Assembly (NCBI GenBank): GCA_003157715.1 | Contig: PMKK01000197.1 | Span: 1-10,333 of the forward strand | Origin: Actinomycetota bacterium | GTDB taxonomy: Bacteria > Actinomycetota > Thermoleophilia > UBA2241 | Direction: 5' to 3' | DNA length: 10,333 nucleotides | Shown: piece by piece, positions 1 through 10,333 of the stretch | Numbering within the stretch: position 1 is the stretch's first letter | Layout: each line of letters starts with the position of its first letter | Notes under the pieces: generated by a model | What the model saw: only the letters and a program-made list of their open reading frames with translations | Told to the model about the DNA's origin: nothing | The model's database searches: none | Translations under genes and position numbers: made by a program

Positions 1-647
1 GCCCAGATGCCCATCGTCTGCTGGCAGAAGGCATTGTTGACGTACACCCACGAGAAGTAGATGTCCGCGGACGTGTCGCCGGGCGCGATGCAGCGCAGAT
101 TCGGGTGGCCAAGATGGGCGACCGCCCATTGCGTGTAGCCGTAGTAGGACTCGCCGGTCATGCCGATGGCGCCGTCGCACCACGGCTGGCCGGCCACCCA
201 CTCCAGCGTATCCCAGCCATCTTCGCTCTCGTGCACGAACGGCTCAAAGACGCCGCCCGAAGACCAGCGGCCGCGCACGTCCTGGATCAGGCAGGCGTAG
301 CCGCGGCGCGCCCAGTACTTGCCGTGCGCCGGCATGTAGCAGTACGCCTCCTGCTTGCCGTAGGGCATGCGGATGAGCACCACCGGCCAGGAGCTCTGAG
401 CGCCTACTGCGCCGGCCGGCCGCGGCAGGTAGAGGTCGGCGCGCAGCACGACGCCGTCGCGCATCGGCACCGCGAGGTCTTTGCGGATGGTGATGCCTTC
501 GCTGCGCACCGGCACCTCGGAGGGCAGCTCCAGGCCGGGCGTGTGGAACCGTTTCTTCAGCGCGCGCCGGGCCAGCTCGACACGCCAGCGCAGGTCGGCG
601 CCGAGCCGCGACGCCTGACGGCGCCGCGTCGCATCGACCGTACTCAT
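1..647 (-). CDS. CocE/NonD family alpha/beta hydrolase (X-Pro dipeptidyl-peptidase S15 type), C-terminus outside window
   Basis: N-terminal 215 residues of a serine hydrolase that runs off the left edge. A leader of about 45 residues precedes a segment typical of this family: MRDGVVLRADLYLP (62-75), then PVVLIRMPYGK (89-98), YWARRGYACLIQDVRGRW (111-128), and the nucleophile elbow GESYYG (165-170) with Ser167 as the predicted catalytic residue. The catalytic Asp and His and the jelly-roll domain would lie outside. Members hydrolyse acyl bonds in esters, amides (cocaine esterase, glutaryl-7-ACA acylase) or Xaa-Pro dipeptides; substrate cannot be told here. No signal peptide is obvious, so it is probably cytoplasmic. 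The ATG at 647-645 overlaps the TGA of the upstream permease as ATGA, with GGAG a few bases before it, so the two are one operon and probably translationally coupled. The permease may import the substrate. Family is confident, substrate unknown. Confidence 0.9.
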   Translation of the reverse strand, partial: MSTVDATRRRQASRLGADLRWRVELARRALKKRFHTPGLELPSEVPVRSEGITIRKDLAVPMRDGVVLRADLYLPRPAGAVGAQSSWPVVLIRMPYGKQEAYCYMPAHGKYWARRGYACLIQDVRGRWSSGGVFEPFVHESEDGWDTLEWVAGQPWCDGAIGMTGESYYGYTQWAVAHLGHPNLRCIAPGDTSADIYFSWVYVNNAFCQQTMGIW

Positions 648-2203
648 GGCGTCTCCGCCGCCTCGGCGACCGTCGCGGCGTCCGGCGAGGCCGCGAGCGG
701 CCCGTCACCGGCCGCCATGGCGGCCGCGAGGCTCTCCGCGGTCTGCGGCCGGCGACGGAAGAACCGCGGTGTGAACATCCACTGCACGAACATCAGGACG
801 ATGCCGACGACGATCACGCCGAGCCCTATCACAAACGGCGGGCCGAAGCCGAACCACGAGTTTCCGGAGACCGAGTTGGCGGGGTTGGCGTTCACGACCG
901 CCGAACGATAGAAGGCCCACATCAGCACGCTCGCGCCGACGAACGGCACCAGGCCCATGAGCAGGAAGTTCCTGGCACTCTTGAACAGCCGGCGCCGGTA
1001 GAAGATCGGACAGGCGAACCCGGTGAAGCCGTAGGTGAAGGCGACGAGAAAGCCGAGACCCGCGATCGAGTCCCAGAGCGTGTTCTGGCTGACGACGGTG
1101 AGACCGACGAACCAGGCCATGGCGGCGACGCCGACTACGATCGTGCCCCAGAACGGCGTCTGGTATCTGGGATGCGTACGCCCGAAGAGCTTGGGAAAGG
1201 CGCCATGGGTCGCCATCGAGAGCGTCGAGCGCGAGGTCGGCAGCAGCGTGGTCAGCGCCGAGGCGATGCCCGAGGTGAACACGGCAAGCAGCACGAGGCG
1301 GTCAAGCGGCGAGCCGAGGACGCTGCGCGACAGCGGCGCCAGGACGTCGTCTGAATTGTTGGCCAGAAACGAGGCGCCGTGGAACGCCTGCGCGGCGACG
1401 GCGATCAGCGTGAAGGTGGCGACCAGCGTGAGCGTGCTGACGATGGCGGAGATGCCCGGCAGGCGCCGCTTGTCTTTGGACTCCTCGTTTACGCTCAGCA
1501 CAGTGTCCCAGCCCCAGTAGACGAAGATGCCGAGCAGGGCGGCACTCGAGAAGGCGCCCCCCGATATGCCGTGGAAGGGCGAAAACCAGGACAGGCCGGG
1601 CGTGACCGACCCGGCGGGGTGCCAGACAAGGACTCGCGTCAGGGCGACTACGGCAAAGAGGATGATGGCGCCGAGCTGCGTGCCCATGAGCACGTACTGG
1701 GTGCGCGCCGAGATCTCGATGCCGAGCGCGCAGACGGCGGTCATCGCCGCGAGCCACGCGACGGCGCCGACCGCGACCCAGAAGCTCGAGTCGGCGCCGG
1801 CCTGCCAGCCGACGAGCAGGAACATGTAGCGGGCGCCGACGGCGGTGAGGTTACCCATGCCGATGACCTGCGCCGCGACGGCGGCGAAGCCGACGACCCA
1901 GCCGATGTGCGGACCCATGGCGTGCGTGACCCAGGTGAACGACTGGCCGCAGTCCGGGTCGGCGCGGTTCATAAAGGCAAAAGCGGCGGCGACCATCAGC
2001 ATCGGGATGAACACGGTGATGAGGATCGCCGGTGACTTGAAGCCCACGACGGCAGCGATGAAGCCGAGGGTGGCGGCCATCGTGTAGGCCGGCGCCGTCG
2101 AGGCGACACCGATCGTCACCGAGGAGAGCATCCCGAGCGCTCCCGGCTTCAGACCTTTCTTGCCGGACTCGCCCACGGTCTCTAGGTTGGCGCTCGCGTC
2201 CAT
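644..2203 (-). CDS. APC superfamily amino acid/amine permease
   Basis: Integral membrane transporter of 519 residues, the usual length for the amino acid-polyamine-organocation family, with about 12-14 hydrophobic helices. TM1 carries the unwound-helix signature GVASTAPAYTMAATLG (about 32-47), where this family binds the amino group of its substrate. A second binding-site helix is seen around VYWGWDTVLSVNEES (about 228-242). The C-terminus is a short Ala-rich cytoplasmic tail. The likely role is proton- or sodium-coupled uptake of an amino acid or amine; the exact substrate is not readable. I chose the ATG at 2203-2201 because an AGGGAGG ribosome binding site lies 4 nt before it; an open frame extends upstream to 2269 but lacks such a site. 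It is first in an operon with the hydrolase (4-nt ATGA overlap) and divergent from a TetR regulator, with an operator-like palindrome in its promoter. Confidence 0.92.
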   Translation of the reverse strand: MDASANLETVGESGKKGLKPGALGMLSSVTIGVASTAPAYTMAATLGFIAAVVGFKSPAILITVFIPMLMVAAAFAFMNRADPDCGQSFTWVTHAMGPHIGWVVGFAAVAAQVIGMGNLTAVGARYMFLLVGWQAGADSSFWVAVGAVAWLAAMTAVCALGIEISARTQYVLMGTQLGAIILFAVVALTRVLVWHPAGSVTPGLSWFSPFHGISGGAFSSAALLGIFVYWGWDTVLSVNEESKDKRRLPGISAIVSTLTLVATFTLIAVAAQAFHGASFLANNSDDVLAPLSRSVLGSPLDRLVLLAVFTSGIASALTTLLPTSRSTLSMATHGAFPKLFGRTHPRYQTPFWGTIVVGVAAMAWFVGLTVVSQNTLWDSIAGLGFLVAFTYGFTGFACPIFYRRRLFKSARNFLLMGLVPFVGASVLMWAFYRSAVVNANPANSVSGNSWFGFGPPFVIGLGVIVVGIVLMFVQWMFTPRFFRRRPQTAESLAAAMAAGDGPLAASPDAATVAEAAETP

Positions 2204-2245
2204 CGGCCCTCCCTGGCTTTTAGGATAGCGGATCGGGGTCTCCGA

Positions 2246-2261
2246 CGACGCGACCGCGTCG
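2246..2261. promoter_or_regulatory. Second palindrome in the permease 5' leader
   Basis: Perfect inverted repeat CGACGCG-AC-CGCGTCG with 7-bp arms and a 2-bp centre, located between the predicted transcription start and the permease ATG. The centre is too short for a good RNA hairpin loop, so a protein-binding dyad is the more natural reading. Its sequence differs from the palindrome at 2288-2303, so the two are unlikely to bind the same protein equally. Chance is possible in GC-rich DNA. Confidence 0.3.
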
Positions 2262-2280
2262 CCCGGCATGGCCCTGCGCG

Positions 2281-2309
2281 AACAGTGGGCCGGGAATCCG
2301 GCCTGTCAA
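2281..2309 (-). promoter_or_regulatory. Candidate sigma70-type promoter of the permease-hydrolase operon
   Basis: On the minus strand a perfect -35 TTGACA (2309-2304) is followed after 17 nt by ACTGTT (2286-2281), a weak -10. Predicted transcription start is near 2274, leaving a 5' leader of about 70 nt before the permease ATG. The spacer is entirely occupied by a palindrome (separate entry). Confidence 0.5.
2288..2303. promoter_or_regulatory. Palindromic operator candidate in the permease promoter spacer
   Basis: Perfect inverted repeat GGCCGG-GAAT-CCGGCC, two 6-bp arms around 4 bp. It lies exactly between the -35 (2309-2304) and -10 (2286-2281) of the permease promoter and about 30 bp before the TATAGT box of the divergent TetR gene. 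TetR dimers bind short dyads placed like this, so repression of the permease and perhaps autoregulation is inferred. GC-rich dyads can arise by chance in such DNA. Confidence 0.5.
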
Positions 2310-2332
2310 GTCCCAAAAAGCAGCGATGACGA

Positions 2333-2338
2333 TATAGT
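2333..2338 (+). promoter_or_regulatory. Candidate -10 box of the TetR regulator gene
   Basis: TATAGT on the plus strand fits a -10 element; a transcription start near 2345 would leave a leader of about 31 nt before the GTG at 2376. The -35 region 17 nt upstream (GTCCCA, 2310-2315) is poor, as expected for a weak or regulated promoter. Confidence 0.35.
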
Positions 2339-2375
2339 TGCGGCACTCGGGGACGGGGCCAGGGAGGAGCAGCAC

Positions 2376-3062
2376 GTGAGCGACGAGCCACACGGGGCGC
2401 CACGTCGGGGGCGGCCGGCAGCAAAGAATGTCAAGGCCAAAACGCACGCCGGCCTGCCCATCCGCGATCCCCTGCAGGCCCTGCCGCCGGCGGCCCGCTG
2501 GGTCCTGCAGTGCGCGCGCCGCATGCTCATCGAACGCGGCTTCGAGGCTCTCACGCTTGAGAACGTCGCGCTCGAGTCTCGCGAGAGCAAGGCGTCGATC
2601 CAGCGCTACTTCGGCAGCAGGGCCGGGCTGATCGAGGCACTCTTCGACTCGCTGATGCACGACGACTACGTGGCGATGAAGTCCGAGGCCGAGAGCCTTC
2701 CCCCGGGGGATGAGCGCGTGCATACGTATCTTCTCGGCCTGCGCGGCATCGCCGGCGACGTCGAGGCCTGGCGGGCATTCTTCGAGATAGTGCCCCACGC
2801 GCTTCGCGACCCGGATCTCCACGAGCGCCTCACACAGATGTATGCGTGGTATCGCGACCTCACGGCCTTCACCTGCGGTCTCGACGGGACGTCACTCGAC
2901 GAGAGACACCAGGACGCCCTCGCGACGCTGATCCTCGCGACGCTGGACGGTCTCTCCTTTCAGGTCGCGCTGGATCCGCGAAGCGTCGATCCGGCTCCGG
3001 CCTTCGAGCTGCTCTACGAGTTCATACAGAGCGCGCTGCGCCCGGAGCGCGACCGGTCGTGA
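2376..3062 (+). CDS. TetR/AcrR family transcriptional regulator
   Basis: DNA-binding regulator of 228 residues. After an unusually long, basic N-terminal arm (about 1-38, with an AT-hook-like RRGRP at 10-14) comes the TetR DNA-binding domain: helix 1 PAARWVLQCARRMLIERGF (38-56), then LTLENVALESRESKASIQRYFGSR (59-82), where SIQRYFGS is the recognition helix region. The rest (about 85-228) is an all-helical ligand-binding and dimer domain with no assignable ligand. I chose GTG at 2376 because AGGGAGGAG (2361-2369) sits 6 nt before it; an ATG in the same frame at 2268 would add 36 residues, lacks a Shine-Dalgarno sequence and overlaps the promoter region. It is divergent from the permease operon with 172 bp between starts, which contains a palindrome inside the permease promoter, so it most likely represses that operon. 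Some of this long-arm type could be activators. Confidence 0.9.
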   Translation: MSDEPHGAPRRGRPAAKNVKAKTHAGLPIRDPLQALPPAARWVLQCARRMLIERGFEALTLENVALESRESKASIQRYFGSRAGLIEALFDSLMHDDYVAMKSEAESLPPGDERVHTYLLGLRGIAGDVEAWRAFFEIVPHALRDPDLHERLTQMYAWYRDLTAFTCGLDGTSLDERHQDALATLILATLDGLSFQVALDPRSVDPAPAFELLYEFIQSALRPERDRS

Positions 3063-4442: not shown

Positions 4443-6533
4443 TCACTCTACCGGCACGACAACCGGCGTGGCCTCCTGGCTCTCGACCTCCTGCCGCCAC
4501 GCTACGCGCTTGCCGACGCGCGCGCGCAACCGCCAGCCGAGCGACTTCTCCTCGTCTTCGATCGCCTCGGCGACGGCGGTGACACGGCCGTAGACGCGCG
4601 CGGCCTCCCGTTCGGAGAGGCCGTAGTCGCTGAGCCAGTCAAGGACTATCTGCAGGTTGGCCGTGATGTCGATGTAGAGGCCCCAGTCATACGCGCATGC
4701 TTCGGCGATGTAGCGCACGCAGATCGACAGATCGTCGTCGATCTCACGCAAGGGCAGATCCTTGAACAAGGCGATGAGGTCGTGCACGTCCTTGCGGTTG
4801 ATGATGCCGATCTGCGCCTTGGAGATGAGTGTGTCGACCGGCGAGATCGCATAGTCGTCGAGGTCGAGTCGCCCGCGGATGTCGACATCGTGGTCCATCC
4901 TCATCACGTCCAGGAAGACGTCGACGTGGTCGACGAGAGGACGGGCGGGTACCCTTAGCTGCTCCCCGGCCCGCGACTGCCCGGGTGCCTCCGGGTCATC
5001 GGACCCCTCCGGACGCTCGAGCCGCGCGGCGCGCAGCGCTTCGTTCTTGACGAACTGCAGCTGCAGTCCTCTCGTCGCCTGGCTCACGTAGATGTTCTCG
5101 GTGTAGCCGAGACCGGCGAACACCTCGTAGAGCGCCTCTTTCTGATCGGAGAGGCCGACGAGATCGACGTCCGAGTACTCGCGGTCCATGAAGCCGAGAT
5201 CGATGCAGTGGCGGCGCACGGCAAGGCCGCCCGCGAGCCGGACGTCGACGCCGGCGCGCCGCGCCACGTCGACCATCGCCATGGCCTCGGTCATGAGACG
5301 GTCGGCCAGGCGGCGCGGCCTTCTGTCCCAGCCCAGCCGTGACTTGAGCGGCTCGCCCTCTGGAGCCTCGTCGACTTCGCCGACCAGGTCCTCGATAGGC
5401 TCCTCGATGGCATCGAGGATGGACGGCGCCACGTAGACGCGCGGGCGGTTCGAGCCCTCGACCAGGGTGATCAGGCCGCGGCTCTCGAGGGCGCGCACGG
5501 CACGGCGCGCCGTGCCGTCGCTCACCTGCAGCGCGCGCCGCACATCGCGCACCGCGATGAACGGCGACACGAAGAGCTCGTCGACCAGCACCGGTGGCGT
5601 GCCCTCGGCCTCCGCGCGGTAGCGCGCCCGCTGACGCAGCAGCAGACGTGCCTGCAGGCGCGCGCGCTCCGCCGTTTCGCGCACGCCGTCGGCGAAGAAC
5701 AGCAGCCACGGCCGCCACTCGCCGTGCGTGCGCACGCGCTGCAGCAGGGTGTAGTACTCGCGGCGGTGCGCCTCGAGATAGGCGGAGAGATACAGGAGCG
5801 GTTGCGAGAGCCTGCCGCGCGAGACGAGAAAGAGGACTATGAAGATGCGGCCCAGGCGCCCGTTGCTGTCGACGAACGGGTGAATCGATTCGAACTGCGC
5901 ATGAGCCATGGCGCACTGCACGAGGTCGGGCAGCCGGTCCCGCTCGGCCAGGAATCCCTCTAGCTGGTCGAGCGCCGCGTTCATCTGTGGTACCGGCGGA
6001 GGAACGTAGGTAGCGGTGGTCAGCGTCGCGCCGGGCGGCCCGATCCAGTTCTGCGTGTTCCTGAACTCGCCCGGGGCTCTCGCCATGACCGCTTCTCCGC
6101 GCAGCAGGCGCTGGTGCAGGCTCCGGACCAGGGTAAGGTCGAGTGGCAGCTTGGCGACACACTCGACGCCGTAGGCAAGCGTCGCGAGCACGTTGCGCAC
6201 CCCGGAAAGCTGGTCGAGGCGGGAACCGGCGGGAGCCGCCGCGATCTCGTCGAGCAGGACCTCCGTGAGGCTCACGTCGGCTCCCTCGATGCGCGAGCTG
6301 CAAAGGGCTTCCTGGCGCAGGAACGGCGCCGCCATCGCCACCGGGCTCGGGAGCTCGTCACCGAGCCCAGACAACGCACCCAAGGCCGCATCGGCGCGTG
6401 AGAGCGCGACGGCAAGCTCCCTCGTGAAGGCTAGCCGCGGCGGCAGCGACGCCGGCACAAAGGCGCAGTAGCCCTCAGGGCAGGCGACGATCCGCCCTGC
6501 CGCCGATGCCTTGAACTCGCTGGGGTCCATCAC
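4443..6533 (-). CDS. Fic family protein fused to a nucleotidyltransferase-like C-terminal domain
   Basis: 696 residues from GTG 6533, or 695 from the adjacent ATG 6530; GAAGG upstream serves either. Part 1 (about 1-300) is a Fic module, which transfers AMP or another nucleotide phosphate to target proteins: an N-terminal Fic_N region with the autoinhibitory motif SSRIEG (79-84, S/T-xxx-E-G), ARAPGEFRNTQNWIG (151-165), and the catalytic motif HPFVDSNGRLGR (218-229) with His218 and a Ser in place of the usual first Gly. Part 2 (about 318-372) is a winged helix (VRRALQVSDGTARRAVRALESRGLI), probably DNA-binding. After an acidic linker, part 3 (about 410-696) resembles nucleotidyltransferase-fold proteins of MNT/AbiEii character: LAGGLAVRRH (433-442), metal motif SDVDLV (454-459), a possible third Asp in HVDVF (536-540), and KDVHDLIALF (581-590). 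Single Fic-winged-helix proteins are near 370 residues, so the last 320 are extra. Role is unknown; toxin, regulator or defence functions are all possible. TGA stop. A gene by itself, 237 nt from the gene upstream. Confidence 0.85.
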   Translation of the reverse strand: MMDPSEFKASAAGRIVACPEGYCAFVPASLPPRLAFTRELAVALSRADAALGALSGLGDELPSPVAMAAPFLRQEALCSSRIEGADVSLTEVLLDEIAAAPAGSRLDQLSGVRNVLATLAYGVECVAKLPLDLTLVRSLHQRLLRGEAVMARAPGEFRNTQNWIGPPGATLTTATYVPPPVPQMNAALDQLEGFLAERDRLPDLVQCAMAHAQFESIHPFVDSNGRLGRIFIVLFLVSRGRLSQPLLYLSAYLEAHRREYYTLLQRVRTHGEWRPWLLFFADGVRETAERARLQARLLLRQRARYRAEAEGTPPVLVDELFVSPFIAVRDVRRALQVSDGTARRAVRALESRGLITLVEGSNRPRVYVAPSILDAIEEPIEDLVGEVDEAPEGEPLKSRLGWDRRPRRLADRLMTEAMAMVDVARRAGVDVRLAGGLAVRRHCIDLGFMDREYSDVDLVGLSDQKEALYEVFAGLGYTENIYVSQATRGLQLQFVKNEALRAARLERPEGSDDPEAPGQSRAGEQLRVPARPLVDHVDVFLDVMRMDHDVDIRGRLDLDDYAISPVDTLISKAQIGIINRKDVHDLIALFKDLPLREIDDDLSICVRYIAEACAYDWGLYIDITANLQIVLDWLSDYGLSEREAARVYGRVTAVAEAIEDEEKSLGWRLRARVGKRVAWRQEVESQEATPVVVPVE

Positions 6534-6770: not shown

Positions 6771-8207
6771 TCAACGCTCCGGCAGCTCCCCGTCGGCCGC
6801 GGCGATGATGTCGGAGATCGTCGCCTCGGCGCCCACGGGCAGCGCCTTGGGCCTGTGCGTGGCAAGGATGTCTTCGAGGATGGCGACCGCGCGCTCGTAC
6901 TCGCTCACGGGCGCGGCCGCCCAGGCCTCGTAGGAGTTGCGGGTGAAGATCGCCGGCGCCCAGTGCTCGCCGGCACGCAGCATCTGTGTCGTGACTTTGG
7001 CCTTCAGGTAGTGACCGCCGGGTCCGGTCTCGTCGATCAGGCCGGCGAGGTAGTGGGCGTCATCGAAGTCGACCCCGCGCATGAGTCGCTGGCACTCGCG
7101 CATGACCTCGGCGTCGAGGATGAGCTTGGGCAGATAGAGCATCTGCGCCGAGTCGAGCATGCCCATGCCGGTCACCAGGTCCACGCCGCTCAGGTGCGCC
7201 AGCACCGCCATGAGCCCGCCGTCGAGTCCCGACTGCATGCAGAGCTCTTTGGCGTCGGAGGTGAAGCCCGTGGTGAGCACCGGGAAGCCGTAATGCTTGC
7301 CCATCTCCGACAGACCGAGGTTGATGAGCACCGCCTCGGGGCCCGCCGTCGCATAGGTGGCGGACCGCATGTCCATGATCGCCGAATCGCCGACGTAGAT
7401 CAGCGGGCAGCCGGGCTCGACGAGCTGCAGCAGCACGAACGAGCTCAGCACATCGCAGTTCGTCTGCAGGATGGTGCCTGCCACTGTGACGGGAGCGGTG
7501 GCGCCGGCCAGGGCGAGGCTGAACACCGTTATCGGCACCCGCTCCTTCGCCAGCAGCATCGCCGCCTCGAGGCTGTCGCGCTCGTGCTGGAGCGGCGCGA
7601 CCGGACAGTAGACGATAGAGAAGGTCGGTCGCTCCCGGTCCCAGCGTCCCTCATCCGAGGCGGCGGCCAGCATGGCCATGACGAACGGCACCTCGTCCGG
7701 GTGGAGCACCTCGGCCTGGACGTGCTTGCCGGTGTTGCGCAGCATCGTCTCGACACCGCGCAGGATCTCGAGCTTAGGCTTCTCGTCCGTCGGGTTGACT
7801 ATGTACCAGGCGACGCCCACCTCGTCGAGAGCATCGCCGACGCGCACCGCCTGGGCGAGATCGTCGGCCTTGGACAGACGACGCTCGCCCGTCTTGTAGT
7901 CGAGGGTGTAGGCGCCGATGCCGTCGAGGGTCGCGTGAGTCCGCGTGTGATCGAGCAGCACATCGCGGGCAGGATCCCGACCGGCCAGGAGCATGGTCTT
8001 GGGGGCCGCGGCTATCGCCTCTTCGACCAGCCGCCGCGGAATGCGGGCGATCTGCGTGTCGTCGTCTACCCGGCAGCCGGCGTCGCGTAGCACGGCCAGC
8101 GCCTTGGGACTCGCGAAACGAACGCCCGTGCGTTCCATCACTTGCAGACTGCGCTCATGGATGCCCTGTTTGCCGGCATCGTCGAGCAGGCTTACTCGAG
8201 GAAACAT
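6771..8207 (-). CDS. MttB-superfamily methyltransferase without pyrrolysine
   Basis: 478 residues, full length for the trimethylamine methyltransferase superfamily (COG5598), a TIM-barrel that moves a methyl group from an amine to a corrinoid protein. Recognisable stretches are LAGRDPARDVLLD (74-86), STVY-like FSIVYCPVAPL (196-206), VFSLALAGATAPVTVAGTI (228-246), PLIYVGDSAIMDMRSATYA (268-286) and YGFPVLTTGFTSDAK (306-320). It has no in-frame TAG. Aligned by eye without gaps to the neighbouring paralogue, Thr316 falls at the pyrrolysine position. Pyrrolysine-free relatives characterised elsewhere (MtgB, MtpB, MtcB) demethylate glycine betaine, proline betaine or carnitine, so a quaternary amine is a better guess than trimethylamine, but the substrate is not shown. 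Start ATG 8207 is fixed by AAGGAG 4 nt upstream. TGA stop. It is divergent from the pyrrolysine MttB gene and may use the same corrinoid protein. Confidence 0.92.
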   Translation of the reverse strand: MFPRVSLLDDAGKQGIHERSLQVMERTGVRFASPKALAVLRDAGCRVDDDTQIARIPRRLVEEAIAAAPKTMLLAGRDPARDVLLDHTRTHATLDGIGAYTLDYKTGERRLSKADDLAQAVRVGDALDEVGVAWYIVNPTDEKPKLEILRGVETMLRNTGKHVQAEVLHPDEVPFVMAMLAAASDEGRWDRERPTFSIVYCPVAPLQHERDSLEAAMLLAKERVPITVFSLALAGATAPVTVAGTILQTNCDVLSSFVLLQLVEPGCPLIYVGDSAIMDMRSATYATAGPEAVLINLGLSEMGKHYGFPVLTTGFTSDAKELCMQSGLDGGLMAVLAHLSGVDLVTGMGMLDSAQMLYLPKLILDAEVMRECQRLMRGVDFDDAHYLAGLIDETGPGGHYLKAKVTTQMLRAGEHWAPAIFTRNSYEAWAAAPVSEYERAVAILEDILATHRPKALPVGAEATISDIIAAADGELPER

Positions 8208-8357: not shown

Positions 8358-8399
8358 TCGAGCAACTGACCTGGCTCCCATCCACCCTGGAGGTCGCCC

Positions 8400-9872
8400 A
8401 TGAAGCGCAACGCACACGCCGGTCGGCTGGGCAGCGGAGGACTGTCCCTGAACGTCTTCACCGATGCCGAGTTCAACGACATCCATCTCGCCACCCTCGA
8501 AGTGCTCGAGCACACCGGCGTCTTCGTGGAAGACGACGAGGCGCTGGACATCTTCGCCGACGGAGGCTGCCGCGTCGATCGCGAGACGAAGACCGTCAGG
8601 ATCCCGCCTTACGTGGTCGAGAGTGCCATTGCCTCGGCGCCGCCTGAGATCGTGCTCGCCGGCAGGGATCCTCGCCATGACATCGTCTTGAGCCCCGGGC
8701 GCGTAGGCTTCTGCAACTTCGGGGAGGGAACGTCGGTCATCGACCCCTTCACCGGCCTGCAGCGGCCGTCGACGAAGAAGGACATCGGCGACGCCGCCCT
8801 GCTGGCCGACGCCCTGGAGGCCGTGGACGTGTTCGAGATGGCCGTCGGCGCCGGCGACTGCCCGCCCGAGACGGCCACCATCCACAACTACGAAGCCGCC
8901 TTGCTCAACTGCACGAAGCCGATCTCGACCGGACCGCAGGACGGCGCGGCCGTGAGGGCGACGGTGGCCATGGCCGCCGAGGTCGTGGGCGGGAAGGACG
9001 CGTTGCGCGACCGGCCGATCCTGCTCTTCGGCACGTGCCCGGTGAGCCCCCTCAAGCTCGTCAAGGACTTCTGCGAGATCGTCATCGCCGCGGCCCGCGC
9101 GGGCCTTCCGAACACCGTCCTCAGCATGGCCATGGCCGGCGGTTCGTCGCCCGTGACCCTGGCGGGGACGCTCGTCACGCACAACGCCGAAGTGCTGGCC
9201 GGCATCACGCTGGCGCAGCTCACCGAGCGTGGCGCGCCCTGCCTCTACGGCAGCTCGACGACCGCCATGGACCTTCGTCTCGCGACGGCCAGCGTGGGCT
9301 CGCCGGAGCTGGCGCTGATCAGCGCCGGCGTGGCCCAGATCGCCCGTCAGTACCGGCTCCCCAGCTACATCGCCGGTGCGTAGGCGGACAGCAAACTGAG
9401 TGACGCGCAAGTCGGTCACGAGAAGACCCTCACAGGCCTTATGGCGGCGTTGGCAGGGACCAACCTGATCTATGGCCTGGGGATGACCGAATCGGGCGTC
9501 ACCTTCGACTTCGGCCAGCTCGTCATGGACAACGAGCTCGCCCTCATGATCAAGCACGTCGTGGCCGGGATCCCCGTCACCGACGAGACCCTGGCGGTGG
9601 AGGACATCGCCAGGGTCGGCGCCTTCGGTGACTTCCTCAGCCTCGACAGCACCATGAAGTTCATGCGCGCGCAGTCGCAGCCCACCCTCATCGACCGCCG
9701 TGTGCGCGAGGACTGGGAGGCGCAGGGGAGCACTGATCTCTACCAGCGCTCTCTGGCACGTGCGCGCGAGATCCTGGAGACGCACCAGCCCCAGGCACTG
9801 CCGGACGAGACGGCGGCCGCGGTCCGCAAGATCGTGGCCGACGCCGACCGGGCCGCGGGCGTAAGAGTCTAG
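8400..9872 (+). CDS. mttB: Trimethylamine methyltransferase MttB with an in-frame UAG pyrrolysine codon
   Basis: One gene of 490 codons with a TAG at codon 328 (9381-9383), read as pyrrolysine. MttB demethylates trimethylamine and passes the methyl group to a corrinoid protein; pyrrolysine is thought to activate the amine in the TIM-barrel active site. Family stretches before the TAG are NFGEGTSVIDPFTGLQRPS (107-125), FGTCPVSPLKLVKDF (211-225), SMAMAGGSSPVTLAGTLV (242-259) and YRLPSYIAGA (318-327). After it, in the same frame with no shift, come ADSKLSDAQVGHEKT (329-343) and NLIYGLGMTESG (355-366), which are MttB sequence. Length and UAG position agree with archaeal MttB (about 495 residues, pyrrolysine near 334). 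Start ATG 8400 has GGAGG 6 nt upstream. A gene finder would report two fragments, 8400-9383 and 9441-9872. The terminal stop is also TAG (9870-9872). The corrinoid gene starts 14 nt later. A nonsense-mutated pseudogene is the alternative but less likely. Confidence 0.92.
9381..9383 (+). other. In-frame UAG, predicted pyrrolysine codon
   Basis: The TAG is codon 328 of mttB (981 bases, 327 codons, after the ATG). It follows YIAGA and precedes ADSK, the position at which MttB proteins carry pyrrolysine. The surrounding frame is open for 327 codons before and 162 codons after. Decoding would need tRNA-Pyl (pylT) and PylS, which are not in this window. Confidence 0.88.
9400..9419 (+). other. Small stem-loop downstream of the UAG
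   Basis: GTGAC (9400-9404) can pair with GTCAC (9415-9419) around a 10-nt loop, starting 16 nt after the UAG. It is roughly where a PYLIS-like element has been proposed in methanogen methylamine methyltransferase messages. A 5-bp stem may be chance, and such elements are not essential for UAG decoding. Confidence 0.2.
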
Positions 9873-9879
9873 AGGAGAG
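9873..9879 (+). promoter_or_regulatory. Ribosome binding site of the corrinoid protein gene
   Basis: AGGAGAG lies directly after the mttB TAG stop and 7 nt before ATG 9887, which fixes that start and indicates one transcript with mttB. Confidence 0.7.
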
Positions 9880-9886
9880 TGGTCAC

Positions 9887-10333
9887 ATGAAAAACCAGCT
9901 CAAGCAAGCCATCATCGACGGCAACGCCGACACCACGAAAGCTCTTGCCGGAGCGCTGCTCGCCACCGGAGCATCGGCCCGCGAGATCCTAGACGAAGCC
10001 CTGCTGCCCGGCATGGAGGTCGTCGGCGAGCGCATGCGCTCGGGAGCGTGCTTCATCCCGGAGGTGCTGCTCTCGGCGAGAGTCATGCAGGGAGCCCTCG
10101 AACTGCTGGAGCCCCACATGGCTGCTGGCGACAGCGCCGGCATGGGCACCGTGGTGATCGGCACCGTCGAGGGCGACCTGCACGATATCGGCAAGAACCT
10201 CGTGGCGATGCTTCTGCAGGGCGCCGGCTTTACCGTGGTCAACCTCGGCACGGGAGTGACGAGCGCGCGGTTCGTGGCGGCGGTTCGCGAGCACGCTCCC
10301 GTGATCGTGGGCATGAGCGCCCTGCTCACCACC
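9887..10333 (+). CDS. mttC: Methylamine corrinoid protein (B12-binding methyl carrier), C-terminus outside window
   Basis: First 149 residues of a small corrinoid protein that receives the methyl group from MttB on its cobalt and hands it to a second methyltransferase. Residues about 1-80 form the helical methyltransferase-2 cap domain (MKNQLKQAIIDGNADTTKAL, then LLPGMEVVGERMRSG at 39-53 and PEVLLSARVMQGALE at 58-72). Then starts the Rossmann-like cobalamin domain: GTVEGDLHDIGKNLV (92-106) with the DxHxxG motif, Asp97, lower-axial ligand His99 and Gly102, and the SxL motif SAL at 144-146. The GG motif and the end (about 65 residues of a usual 210-220) are cut by the window edge. The position 14 nt after mttB identifies it as the MttB partner (MttC) rather than MtmC or MtbC, which are close in sequence. 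It could also serve the divergent paralogue. Confidence 0.93.
   Translation, partial: MKNQLKQAIIDGNADTTKALAGALLATGASAREILDEALLPGMEVVGERMRSGACFIPEVLLSARVMQGALELLEPHMAAGDSAGMGTVVIGTVEGDLHDIGKNLVAMLLQGAGFTVVNLGTGVTSARFVAAVREHAPVIVGMSALLTT

What the first reader, a model, noticed from the sequence alone, without database searches (positions are those of the whole stretch)
8400..9872. A split-looking mttB is one pyrrolysine-containing gene
The TAG at 9381-9383 lies in frame at codon 328 of an otherwise uninterrupted MttB. Both flanks are family sequence (YRLPSYIAGA before, ADSKLSDAQVGHEK after), and the position corresponds to the pyrrolysine site of archaeal MttB. The gene has a strong ribosome binding site, its downstream corrinoid partner follows, and 162 codons after the TAG are intact. 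This points to the 22nd amino acid in this host and would be missed or annotated as two truncated proteins.
Basis: partly seen in the sequence, partly recalled or inferred. Interest (0 to 1): 0.95.

Follow-up and report, generated by a model that had tools for sequence, protein, structure and literature searches.

The report
Pyrrolysine gene with conserved RNA hairpin
A bacterial gene of the trimethylamine-methyltransferase family is interrupted by a UAG stop codon that is likely read as the rare 22nd amino acid pyrrolysine, and shortly after it lies a conserved sequence, predicted to fold into a small RNA hairpin and seen after the same codon in three different enzyme families of related bacteria, that would help the cell tell this UAG from the ordinary UAG stops it also uses.

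Summary
TAG 9381-9383 is codon 328 of one mttB frame (8400-9872). The joined protein passes NCBIfam's pyrrolysine-MttB model (702 bits, cut-off 525). TAG sits at the same site in all 61 TAG-bearing MttB relatives aligned. The window's own genome is not held. In the class of its nearest named relative (Thermoleophilia), 19 of 399 sampled genomes have pylS over the cut-off. All 19 also have pylSn and pylC; 15 have every part sought. Over-cut-off MttB occurs in 19/19 of them and in 0/21 pylS-negative genomes tried.

The evidence went further. One genome holds 16 TAG-bearing methyltransferase genes. Another, sampled, ends about 27% of genes with TAG. After the pyrrolysine TAG, synonymous codons are nearly frozen and spell a 6-bp hairpin with an AG(G/A)N loop: mttB 58/60, mtbB 48/48 (strong covariation), mtmB 6/6. 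It was absent from 37 sense-codon paralogs and 235 ordinary stops. In the window it lies at 9449-9464, with one of six pairs mismatched. I read it as a likely pyrrolysine-insertion hairpin; its effect on decoding is untested.

Pyrrolysine in bacteria is known. A hairpin shared by all three methyltransferase families was not reported in what I could search.

The parts
8389..8394 (+). GGAGGT, ribosome-binding sequence of mttB
   Evidence: read from the sequence
8400..9872 (+). mttB, trimethylamine:corrinoid methyltransferase, one gene of 490 codons with an in-frame TAG
   Evidence: TIGR02369 702.1 bits, cut-off 525, full length; PF06253; constraint on both sides of the TAG
9381..9383 (+). TAG codon 328, likely read as pyrrolysine
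   Evidence: same column in 61 of 61 TAG-bearing relatives; aligns with the X/K of PDB 7xcl/7xcm
9381..9480 (+). Rfam PYLIS_3 match (RF02510)
   Evidence: 66.9 bits, gathering 38
9449..9464 (+). predicted hairpin, stem 9449-9454 with 9459-9464, loop 9455-9458 (AGGG); inner pair C9454/A9459 is mismatched here, 5 of 6 pairs form
   Evidence: only 1 of 105 TAG triplets of the window (both strands) has this element, the one at 9381; conserved in relatives
9870..9872 (+). TAG that ends mttB; next in-frame stop TGA at 9888-9890
   Evidence: no hairpin after it
9873..9879 (+). AGGAGAG, ribosome-binding sequence of the next gene
   Evidence: read from the sequence
9887..10333 (+). corrinoid protein gene (MttC-like), cut by the window's end
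   Evidence: PF02607 and PF02310 over cut-off; best NCBIfam corrinoid models below their cut-offs, as the protein is cut
6771..8207 (-). second MttB-like gene without TAG (sense residue at the site), divergent from mttB
   Evidence: TIGR02369 396.3 bits, below the cut-off 525; 34% identical to the TAG gene

Best explanation
The mttB gene at 8400-9872 is one gene whose in-frame TAG (9381-9383) is likely read as pyrrolysine, and a predicted mRNA hairpin at 9449-9464, counted +69 to +84 from the T of that TAG, would favour reading it over stopping. Inferred working: PylB, PylC and PylD make pyrrolysine; the split synthetase PylSn/PylSc charges tRNA-Pyl(CUA); the hairpin with its AG(G/A)N loop marks this UAG as sense, by binding a factor or by holding back release factor 1; the finished MttB passes a methyl group of trimethylamine to the corrinoid protein encoded next. 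Shown by the calls: one continuous gene, the conserved TAG, co-occurrence of the pyl set with TAG genes in relatives, frozen synonymous codons and covarying pairs in relatives. Inferred: pyl genes in this host, pyrrolysine in the protein, and any effect of the hairpin on decoding.
For: Gene and codon. Machinery in relatives: pylS over cut-off in 19 of 399 genomes; of these pylSn 19/19, pylB 18/19, pylC 19/19 and pylD 17/19 by tblastn, tRNA-Pyl 18/19 (plus G005). MttB over cut-off in 19/19 pylS-positive and 0/21 pylS-negative genomes. Hairpin: mttB 58/60 against a synonymous-shuffle mean of 0.5, maximum 4; mtbB 48/48 against 1.95, maximum 7; mtmB 6/6, 0 of 200 shuffles as good; mtbB covariation score 0.314 against 0.103, 0 of 500 shuffles; absent in 37 sense paralogs and after 235 ordinary stops; its codons TTG GCA are CTC GCG in a relative with Val in place of TAG. 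MttB, MtbB and MtmB show no sequence similarity to each other (best E 2.2, 0.50, 0.064).
Against: The host's genome is not held and its class is unsettled. Two of 60 mttB genes with TAG lack the hairpin (L070, L108). The window and four close relatives have a mismatched inner pair. mttB itself varies too little: its covariation is weak (0.055 against 0.030, 3 of 500 shuffles; a structure slid by -3 reaches 0.052). In mtbB two of the five measures do not exceed shuffles (pairs with double change 299/500, further pair types 63/500). Folding energy of the 126 bases after the TAG is not unusual. All rows come from 19 related genomes with many paralogs, and sense paralogs were fewer (37), which lowers their power. 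In archaea the PYLIS of mtmB is reported as not essential (PMC2933860, passages).
Confidence: 0.7

Rival explanations
1. TAG is likely read as pyrrolysine by plain competition of tRNA-Pyl with release factor 1, and the hairpin acts elsewhere: mRNA stability, control of transcription when ribosomes stop at the TAG, or binding of a regulator of methylamine genes.
For: The hairpin's distance from the TAG differs among families (loop at +75, +81, +117), and it lies beyond the ribosome's footprint (recalled). PYLIS is not essential in M. acetivorans (PMC2933860, passages).
Against: Strict tie to the pyrrolysine TAG: 139 of the 140 TAG triplets with the hairpin and open frames on both sides are mttB or mtbB; 0 of 37 sense MttB paralogs have it, although they belong to the same pathway.
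Confidence: 0.22
2. The hairpin is not a functional RNA; frozen codons reflect recent spread or gene conversion of this segment among paralogs, or codon-choice demands of protein folding.
For: Many paralogs per genome; mttB rows are nearly identical in this segment (61 rows, 32 distinct).
Against: Gly codons within and next to the segment stay variable (codons 353 and 359). In mtbB two pairs change on both sides at third positions (outer pair CG 17, GC 9, UA 4, AU 3, UG 3, other 4). Three protein families without sequence similarity arrive at the same hairpin shape.
Confidence: 0.07
3. The window's gene is a pseudogene or its host lacks pyrrolysine, so that only a 327-residue product is made.
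For: No pyl gene lies in the window and no genome is held; the nearest relative shows weaker constraint after the TAG than before it.
Against: 162 intact codons, constraint after the TAG in all six comparisons, TAG in 61 of 61 relatives, hairpin kept.
Confidence: 0.05

Closest known systems
Archaeal pyrrolysine MttB (PDB 7xcl, 7xcn, 7xcm; TIGR02369)
   Same: Full-length match; window codon 328 falls on the X (7xcl) or K (7xcm) of the same site.
   Different: Bacterial, high-GC host; TAG also ends this gene; hairpin with frozen codons after the TAG.
Known pyrrolysine bacteria such as Bilophila, Desulfitobacterium and Deltaproteobacteria (PMC7593587, PMC8318568, passages)
   Same: TAG mttB, pylBCD, split pylSn/pylSc, tRNA-Pyl.
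   Different: Bilophila genomes lack the dimethylamine gene and have a sense mtmB (PMC7593587, passage); the relatives here have up to 11 TAG mtbB and, in 6 of 19, TAG mtmB.
PYLIS (archaeal mtmB element; Rfam PYLIS_3 for mttB)
   Same: Downstream of a pyrrolysine UAG; window matches PYLIS_3. The Rfam consensus keeps AGGU at the loop place and, by my count, 3 of the 6 pairs.
   Different: One local 6-bp hairpin shared by mttB, mtbB and mtmB; published work saw no common structure in mttB and nothing PYLIS-like in mtbB (PMC3639795 section 17, PMC2933860 passages).
Bacterial SECIS (selenocysteine)
   Same: A hairpin in the coding region after a recoded stop codon.
   Different: SECIS follows UGA closely and is bound by SelB (recalled); here the loop starts at +75, +81 or +117 and no binding factor is known.
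AGNN tetraloop hairpins of yeast RNase III (recalled)
   Same: Loop letters AG(G/A)N on a short stem.
   Different: Resemblance of loop letters only; no relation was tested.

Membership tests
Pyrrolysine trimethylamine methyltransferase (TIGR02369 equivalog) | score over the curated cut-off, full length | tested here: met
   702.1 bits, cut-off 525, profile 2-469 of 469
Pyrrolysine trimethylamine methyltransferase (TIGR02369 equivalog) | single in-frame TAG at the conserved site | tested here: met
   61 of 61 relatives in the same column; site of X/K in 7xcl/7xcm
Pyrrolysine trimethylamine methyltransferase (TIGR02369 equivalog) | pyrrolysine in the protein and trimethylamine activity | not testable with these tools
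   needs mass spectrometry and an enzyme assay
Pyrrolysine-decoding organism | pylS, pylB, pylC, pylD and tRNA-Pyl in the window's own genome | not testable with these tools
   no genome held; none of these in the window
Pyrrolysine-decoding organism | the same set in relatives with TAG mttB | tested here: met
   all six parts (with pylSn) in 15 of 19; lacking: pylB G003, pylD G047 and G076, tRNA G079
PYLIS_3 (RF02510) | score over the gathering threshold | tested here: met
   66.9 bits, gathering 38
PYLIS as an insertion element | raises pyrrolysine insertion over termination | not testable with these tools
   needs a reporter assay
PYLIS as an insertion element | conserved RNA structure with covariation in pyrrolysine genes | tested here: met
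   mtbB 0 of 500 shuffles; mttB weak, 3 of 500; mtmB pairs do not vary in 6 genes
Bacterial SECIS | hairpin after UGA | tested here: not met
   codon is TAG; hairpin begins at +69 from its first base

The most novel reading that the evidence does not exclude
These actinobacteria use UAG both as a common stop and as pyrrolysine in up to 16 genes of a genome, and tell the two apart with one dedicated mRNA signal: a 6-bp hairpin with an AG(G/A)N loop, present in three methyltransferase families without sequence similarity, and thus a true, general pyrrolysine insertion element.
Probability: 0.55. Interest if true: 0.92.

Novelty: new variant of a known kind. Interest (0 to 1): 0.8.

Why it matters
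How a cell tells a pyrrolysine UAG from a stop UAG is unsettled: the archaeal PYLIS was judged helpful but not essential and not common to all pyrrolysine genes (PMC2933860 and PMC3639795, passages). The relatives of the window do not shun TAG as a stop (64 of 238 predicted genes in a 400 kb sample of G081), hold many pyrrolysine genes, and show one short, sequence-defined candidate signal that synonymous mutation can test directly. It also works as a tag: of 13,015 TAG triplets in all loci fetched up to then, 140 had the hairpin with open frames on both sides, and 139 of these were mttB or mtbB (loci overlap, so some genes count twice). Natural contexts that favour UAG decoding would be of use in genetic code expansion. 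Many records of these genes are cut at residue 327, so the metabolism is under-reported.

Tried and rejected
A long-range fold covering +19 to +124 looked attractive in single-sequence folds (noted). Folding energy against synonymous shuffles did not single out the region after the TAG (TAG genes mean z -0.73, the next stretch -0.74, sense paralogs -0.29), so I dropped it and kept the local hairpin.

The mttB letters GCGTTGGCAGG are not shared by the eight mtbB printed; what is shared is the hairpin shape and the AG(G/A)N loop.

Host class stays open. The window's deacetylase is closest in pylS-positive G027 (69%, 412 bits; best pylS-negative genome 178 bits, none above 47%), and the MttB tree, made by the quick method, groups it with G021. 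But the permease's best hit, 76%, is named Acidimicrobiales. A sample of 396 Actinomycetota genomes gave two with over-cut-off MttB, both already known from the class search (G001, G005). Pyrrolysine in Acidimicrobiia is neither shown nor excluded.

Out of reach: viral contigs gave no relative; plasmids gave only MttB under 60% identity, and a DNA search there only short pieces. I could not fetch pyrrolysine genes of Firmicutes, Desulfobacterota or archaea as DNA, so the reach of the hairpin beyond these 19 genomes is unknown.

Rows left out: six TAG-bearing MttB fragments (G009:C259, G069:C180, G057:C79, G009:C269, G085:C333, G047:C30) were not fetched. Two of the 62 mttB rows (L086, L087) were too short. 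A frameshifted second mtmB of G081 was left out. For mtbB I used 48 of the TAG-bearing matches and 40 of these 48. The 21 pylS-negative genomes were picked by me from 380.

Full report
WHAT WAS CHECKED. The frame starting at ATG 8400 is stopped by TAG at 9381-9383 and goes on to a second TAG at 9870-9872. Read through, it is a 490-residue MttB with the TAG at codon 328. The protein fits NCBIfam TIGR02369, the curated model for pyrrolysine MttB, with 702.1 bits against a cut-off of 525; the second MttB-like gene of the window (6771-8207, minus strand, 34% identical, no TAG) stays below it with 396.3 bits. A search of solved structures puts codon 328 on the X of PDB 7xcl and the K of 7xcm (that this X is pyrrolysine is recalled). 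Rfam PYLIS_3 starts at the TAG.

RELATIVES. The only relative found in the GTDB contigs was L001, from an uncultured Thermoleophilia MAG (Actinomycetota), 72% identical and with TAG at the same codon. Its genome, G001, has 38 MttB-family matches, five over the cut-off, each with one TAG. A search for PylS in 399 genomes drawn from its class gave 19 over the cut-off. I then searched MttB in these 19 and in 21 of the 380 others: over-cut-off matches in 19/19 and 0/21. Of the 65 over-cut-off matches listed, 64 contain exactly one TAG and one, in G079, contains no stop. In the 19 genomes pylSn is found in 19, pylB in 18, pylC in 19 and pylD in 17 (tblastn with the G001 proteins in the fetched stretches), tRNA-Pyl in 18 (17 by a pattern with no control hits; G005 by ARAGORN). 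Fifteen have all six parts. G001 carries pylSc, a corrinoid-protein gene, pylSn, tRNA-Pyl, pylD, pylC and pylB on one contig. Other TAG genes abound: mtbB over the cut-off in 19/19 genomes, every listed over-cut-off match with one TAG, 11 in G001, which with its five mttB makes 16. Full-length mtmB with TAG is in 6 of 19; 7 more have only sense versions, 6 none.

THE WINDOW'S PLACE. Of the 120 best protein hits, 76 are short records ending in the residues before the TAG, 65 of exactly 327 residues. Apart from a 100% record (P0003) the closest of these are 79-82% identical; full-length ones reach 61% at most. In a quick tree of 150 rows, on the part before the TAG, the window joins a 7-row group (SH-aLRT 99) with G021 and five truncated records, inside a 112-row clade of TAG or truncated rows only; seven full-length rows are nested among TAG rows. 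In 40 of the 44 full-length hits the site could be read: L 19, W 12, A 2, S 2, T 2, G 2, V 1. Constraint before and after the TAG is alike in five of six comparisons and weaker after it in the sixth, L081. The host's class is probably Thermoleophilia but not settled. A contig of 1,978,625 bases is the longest one for both a 327-residue MttB (P0103) and a relative of the window's deacetylase (P0249, 75%), which hints at a related chromosome with both.

TAG IS ALSO A STOP. With a simple gene picker on 400 kb of G081 (pyl-positive), 64 of 238 genes end in TAG (26.9%; TAG is 26.5% of stop triplets in that DNA); in G082 (pylS-negative) 47 of 198. One genome of each kind was sampled. Of 59 TAG-bearing mttB with a readable end, 7 also end in TAG, as the window's gene does. 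The window's deacetylase gene ends in TAG too. So these cells have to read UAG in two ways; PMC2933860 (passages) says the same of archaea with pyl genes.

THE HAIRPIN. I asked which synonymous codons are frozen in 62 TAG mttB (pairwise identity 41-97%, median 58%), against pooled codon usage. Of the 11 strongest of 160 sites, 9 lie 11-39 codons after the TAG: +24 GCA 59/60 (log10 P -72.8), +23 TTG 55/61, +22 GCG 60/61, +26 GCC 51/51, +28 CTG 42/47 and others. In 48 TAG mtbB (median identity 54%) the strongest of 120 sites is +26 GGA 48/48 (-56.9), then the Leu codon before the TAG (TTG or TTA 44/44), then +28 CTG 41/47. In 37 sense-codon MttB paralogs the best of 121 sites reaches -6.1. P values assume independent rows and serve for ranking only; fewer rows give the paralogs less power.

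The frozen letters spell hairpins. In mttB, +69 to +84 from the T of the TAG: GUUGGC-AGGN-GCCAAC. In mtbB, +75 to +90, for example GGCCGG-AGAY-CUGGUC, with a variable outer pair. The rare codon (GCA, GGA) supplies the first A of the loop. With at least 5 of 6 pairs and a loop starting AG: mttB 58 of 60 (synonymous shuffles: mean 0.5, maximum 4, 300 runs), mtbB 48 of 48 (mean 1.95, maximum 7). Of the offsets scanned, 10 to 124, these are the best in each family (97% and 100% of genes; next best 55% and 44%). In 40 mtbB the outer pair is CG 17, GC 9, UA 4, AU 3, UG 3, other 4, and another pair CG 25, UG 9, GC 4, UA 1, other 1. The covariation score is 0.314 against 0.103 +- 0.018, 0 of 500 shuffles; slid versions reach at most 0.106; the number of pairs with a double change (299/500) and of further pair types (63/500) does not stand out. 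RNAalifold, given the alignment without a structure, returns the same hairpin with one pair more. mttB varies little: three double changes (G-C to A-U once, U-A to C-G twice), score 0.055 against 0.030, 3 of 500, while a version slid by -3 reaches 0.052. In seven mtmB rows an open scan put a hairpin with an AGGU loop at +117 on top, tied with the same hairpin counted one pair shorter. In the six intact TAG mtmB (five alike, plus the divergent G045) it is CGACGU-AGGU-GCGUUG, +111 to +126, 6 of 6 pairs in all; none of 200 shuffles had a site as good; four of the eight codon-invariant sites among 45 after the TAG are its codons GTA GGT GCG TTG. MttB, MtbB and MtmB have no sequence similarity to one another (one protein each).

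Specificity. Hairpin at the homologous place in 0 of 37 sense paralogs; after 0 of 64 TAG, 0 of 151 TGA and 0 of 20 TAA stops of the G081 sample, tested at +75 and +81; of 13,015 TAG triplets in the loci held then (loci overlap), 153 have it, 140 with open frames on both sides, of which 139 are mttB at +75 (68) or mtbB at +81 (71), sorted by short peptide marks, and one is another frame in pylS-negative G082. Two of 60 mttB lack it (L070, L108). In G079 a TAG mttB has a neighbour with Val in place of the TAG: it reads GCG CTC GCG where TAG genes read GCG TTG GCA; this is one case. In the window 1 of 105 TAG triplets has the hairpin, the one at 9381, with 5 of 6 pairs.

LITERATURE. Pyrrolysine in bacteria is well known, and a 2025 review counts two Actinobacteria among bacterial PylRS carriers (PMC11764691, passages). 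Searches for pyrrolysine with Thermoleophilia (1 paper), Actinomycetota (2) and Acidimicrobi (3), and for pylS with Actinobacteriota (0), showed no title about pyrrolysine in these bacteria (listings only, papers not opened; open-access papers, no preprints). A wider search, pyrrolysine with Actinobacteria, held 52 papers, 25 listed. On the element, PMC3639795 (passages and section 17) finds no common structure in mttB and unlike ones in mtmB and mtbB, and cites lower yields with synonymous changes in PYLIS. PMC2933860 (passages) says that PYLIS is not essential, that nothing similar was seen in mtbB and that covariance in mtmB is limited. A search for PYLIS listed 20 papers, none with a title on a shared hairpin. 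Of PMC9999580, PMC8318568, PMC9723677, PMC11467909, PMC11363022 and PMC7593587 I saw passages only. Hence: known amino acid, known enzyme, apparently new signal.

VERDICT. The stronger finding is the hairpin that goes with the pyrrolysine codon. That it is a conserved RNA element I put at about 0.9; that it acts in decoding at about 0.6.

Noticed in passing
L085 (G079:C191:759-2159) and proteins such as P0004, P0005, P0008, P0011, P0028: Full-length MttB with Val or Leu at the pyrrolysine site, nested among TAG genes in the tree: a natural loss of pyrrolysine, in G079 beside a TAG copy.
   Followed up: partly
L037 10183-10845 and relatives: A nitroreductase/BluB/FbiB-like gene lies next to pylB in G001; a relative was found in the fetched pyl stretches of 12 of 19 genomes. 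Role unknown.
   Followed up: no
tRNA-Pyl of L037, L043, L046, L048 against L049, L050, L051, L053, L054: Two forms of tRNA-Pyl in the class, 73 and 72 bases long, differing by one base before the anticodon.
   Followed up: no
mttB, mtbB and mtmB of the pyl-positive genomes: When Leu precedes the pyrrolysine TAG its codon is TTG or TTA: 25 of 25 in mttB, 44 of 44 in mtbB, 7 of 7 mtmB rows shown, although CTN codons are far commoner.
   Followed up: partly
G033:C261:24804-24845: A second, apparently broken tRNA-Pyl-like stretch beside the intact one on C71.
   Followed up: no
G081:C1:99499-100850: A second mtmB copy with a shifted frame near the intact one at 108843-110195.
   Followed up: no
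window 644-2269 (minus) and 2268-3062 (plus): Amino-acid permease whose best named relative (76%) is Acidimicrobiales, not Thermoleophilia, beside a TetR-family regulator with a BetI-type C-terminal domain.
   Followed up: partly
window 4443-6533 (minus): A 696-residue protein with a Fic domain and a long C-terminal part without a Pfam match over its cut-off.
   Followed up: no
G001: 38 MttB-family matches in one genome of 3.5 Mb, five of them TAG genes: a very large methyltransferase repertoire.
   Followed up: no
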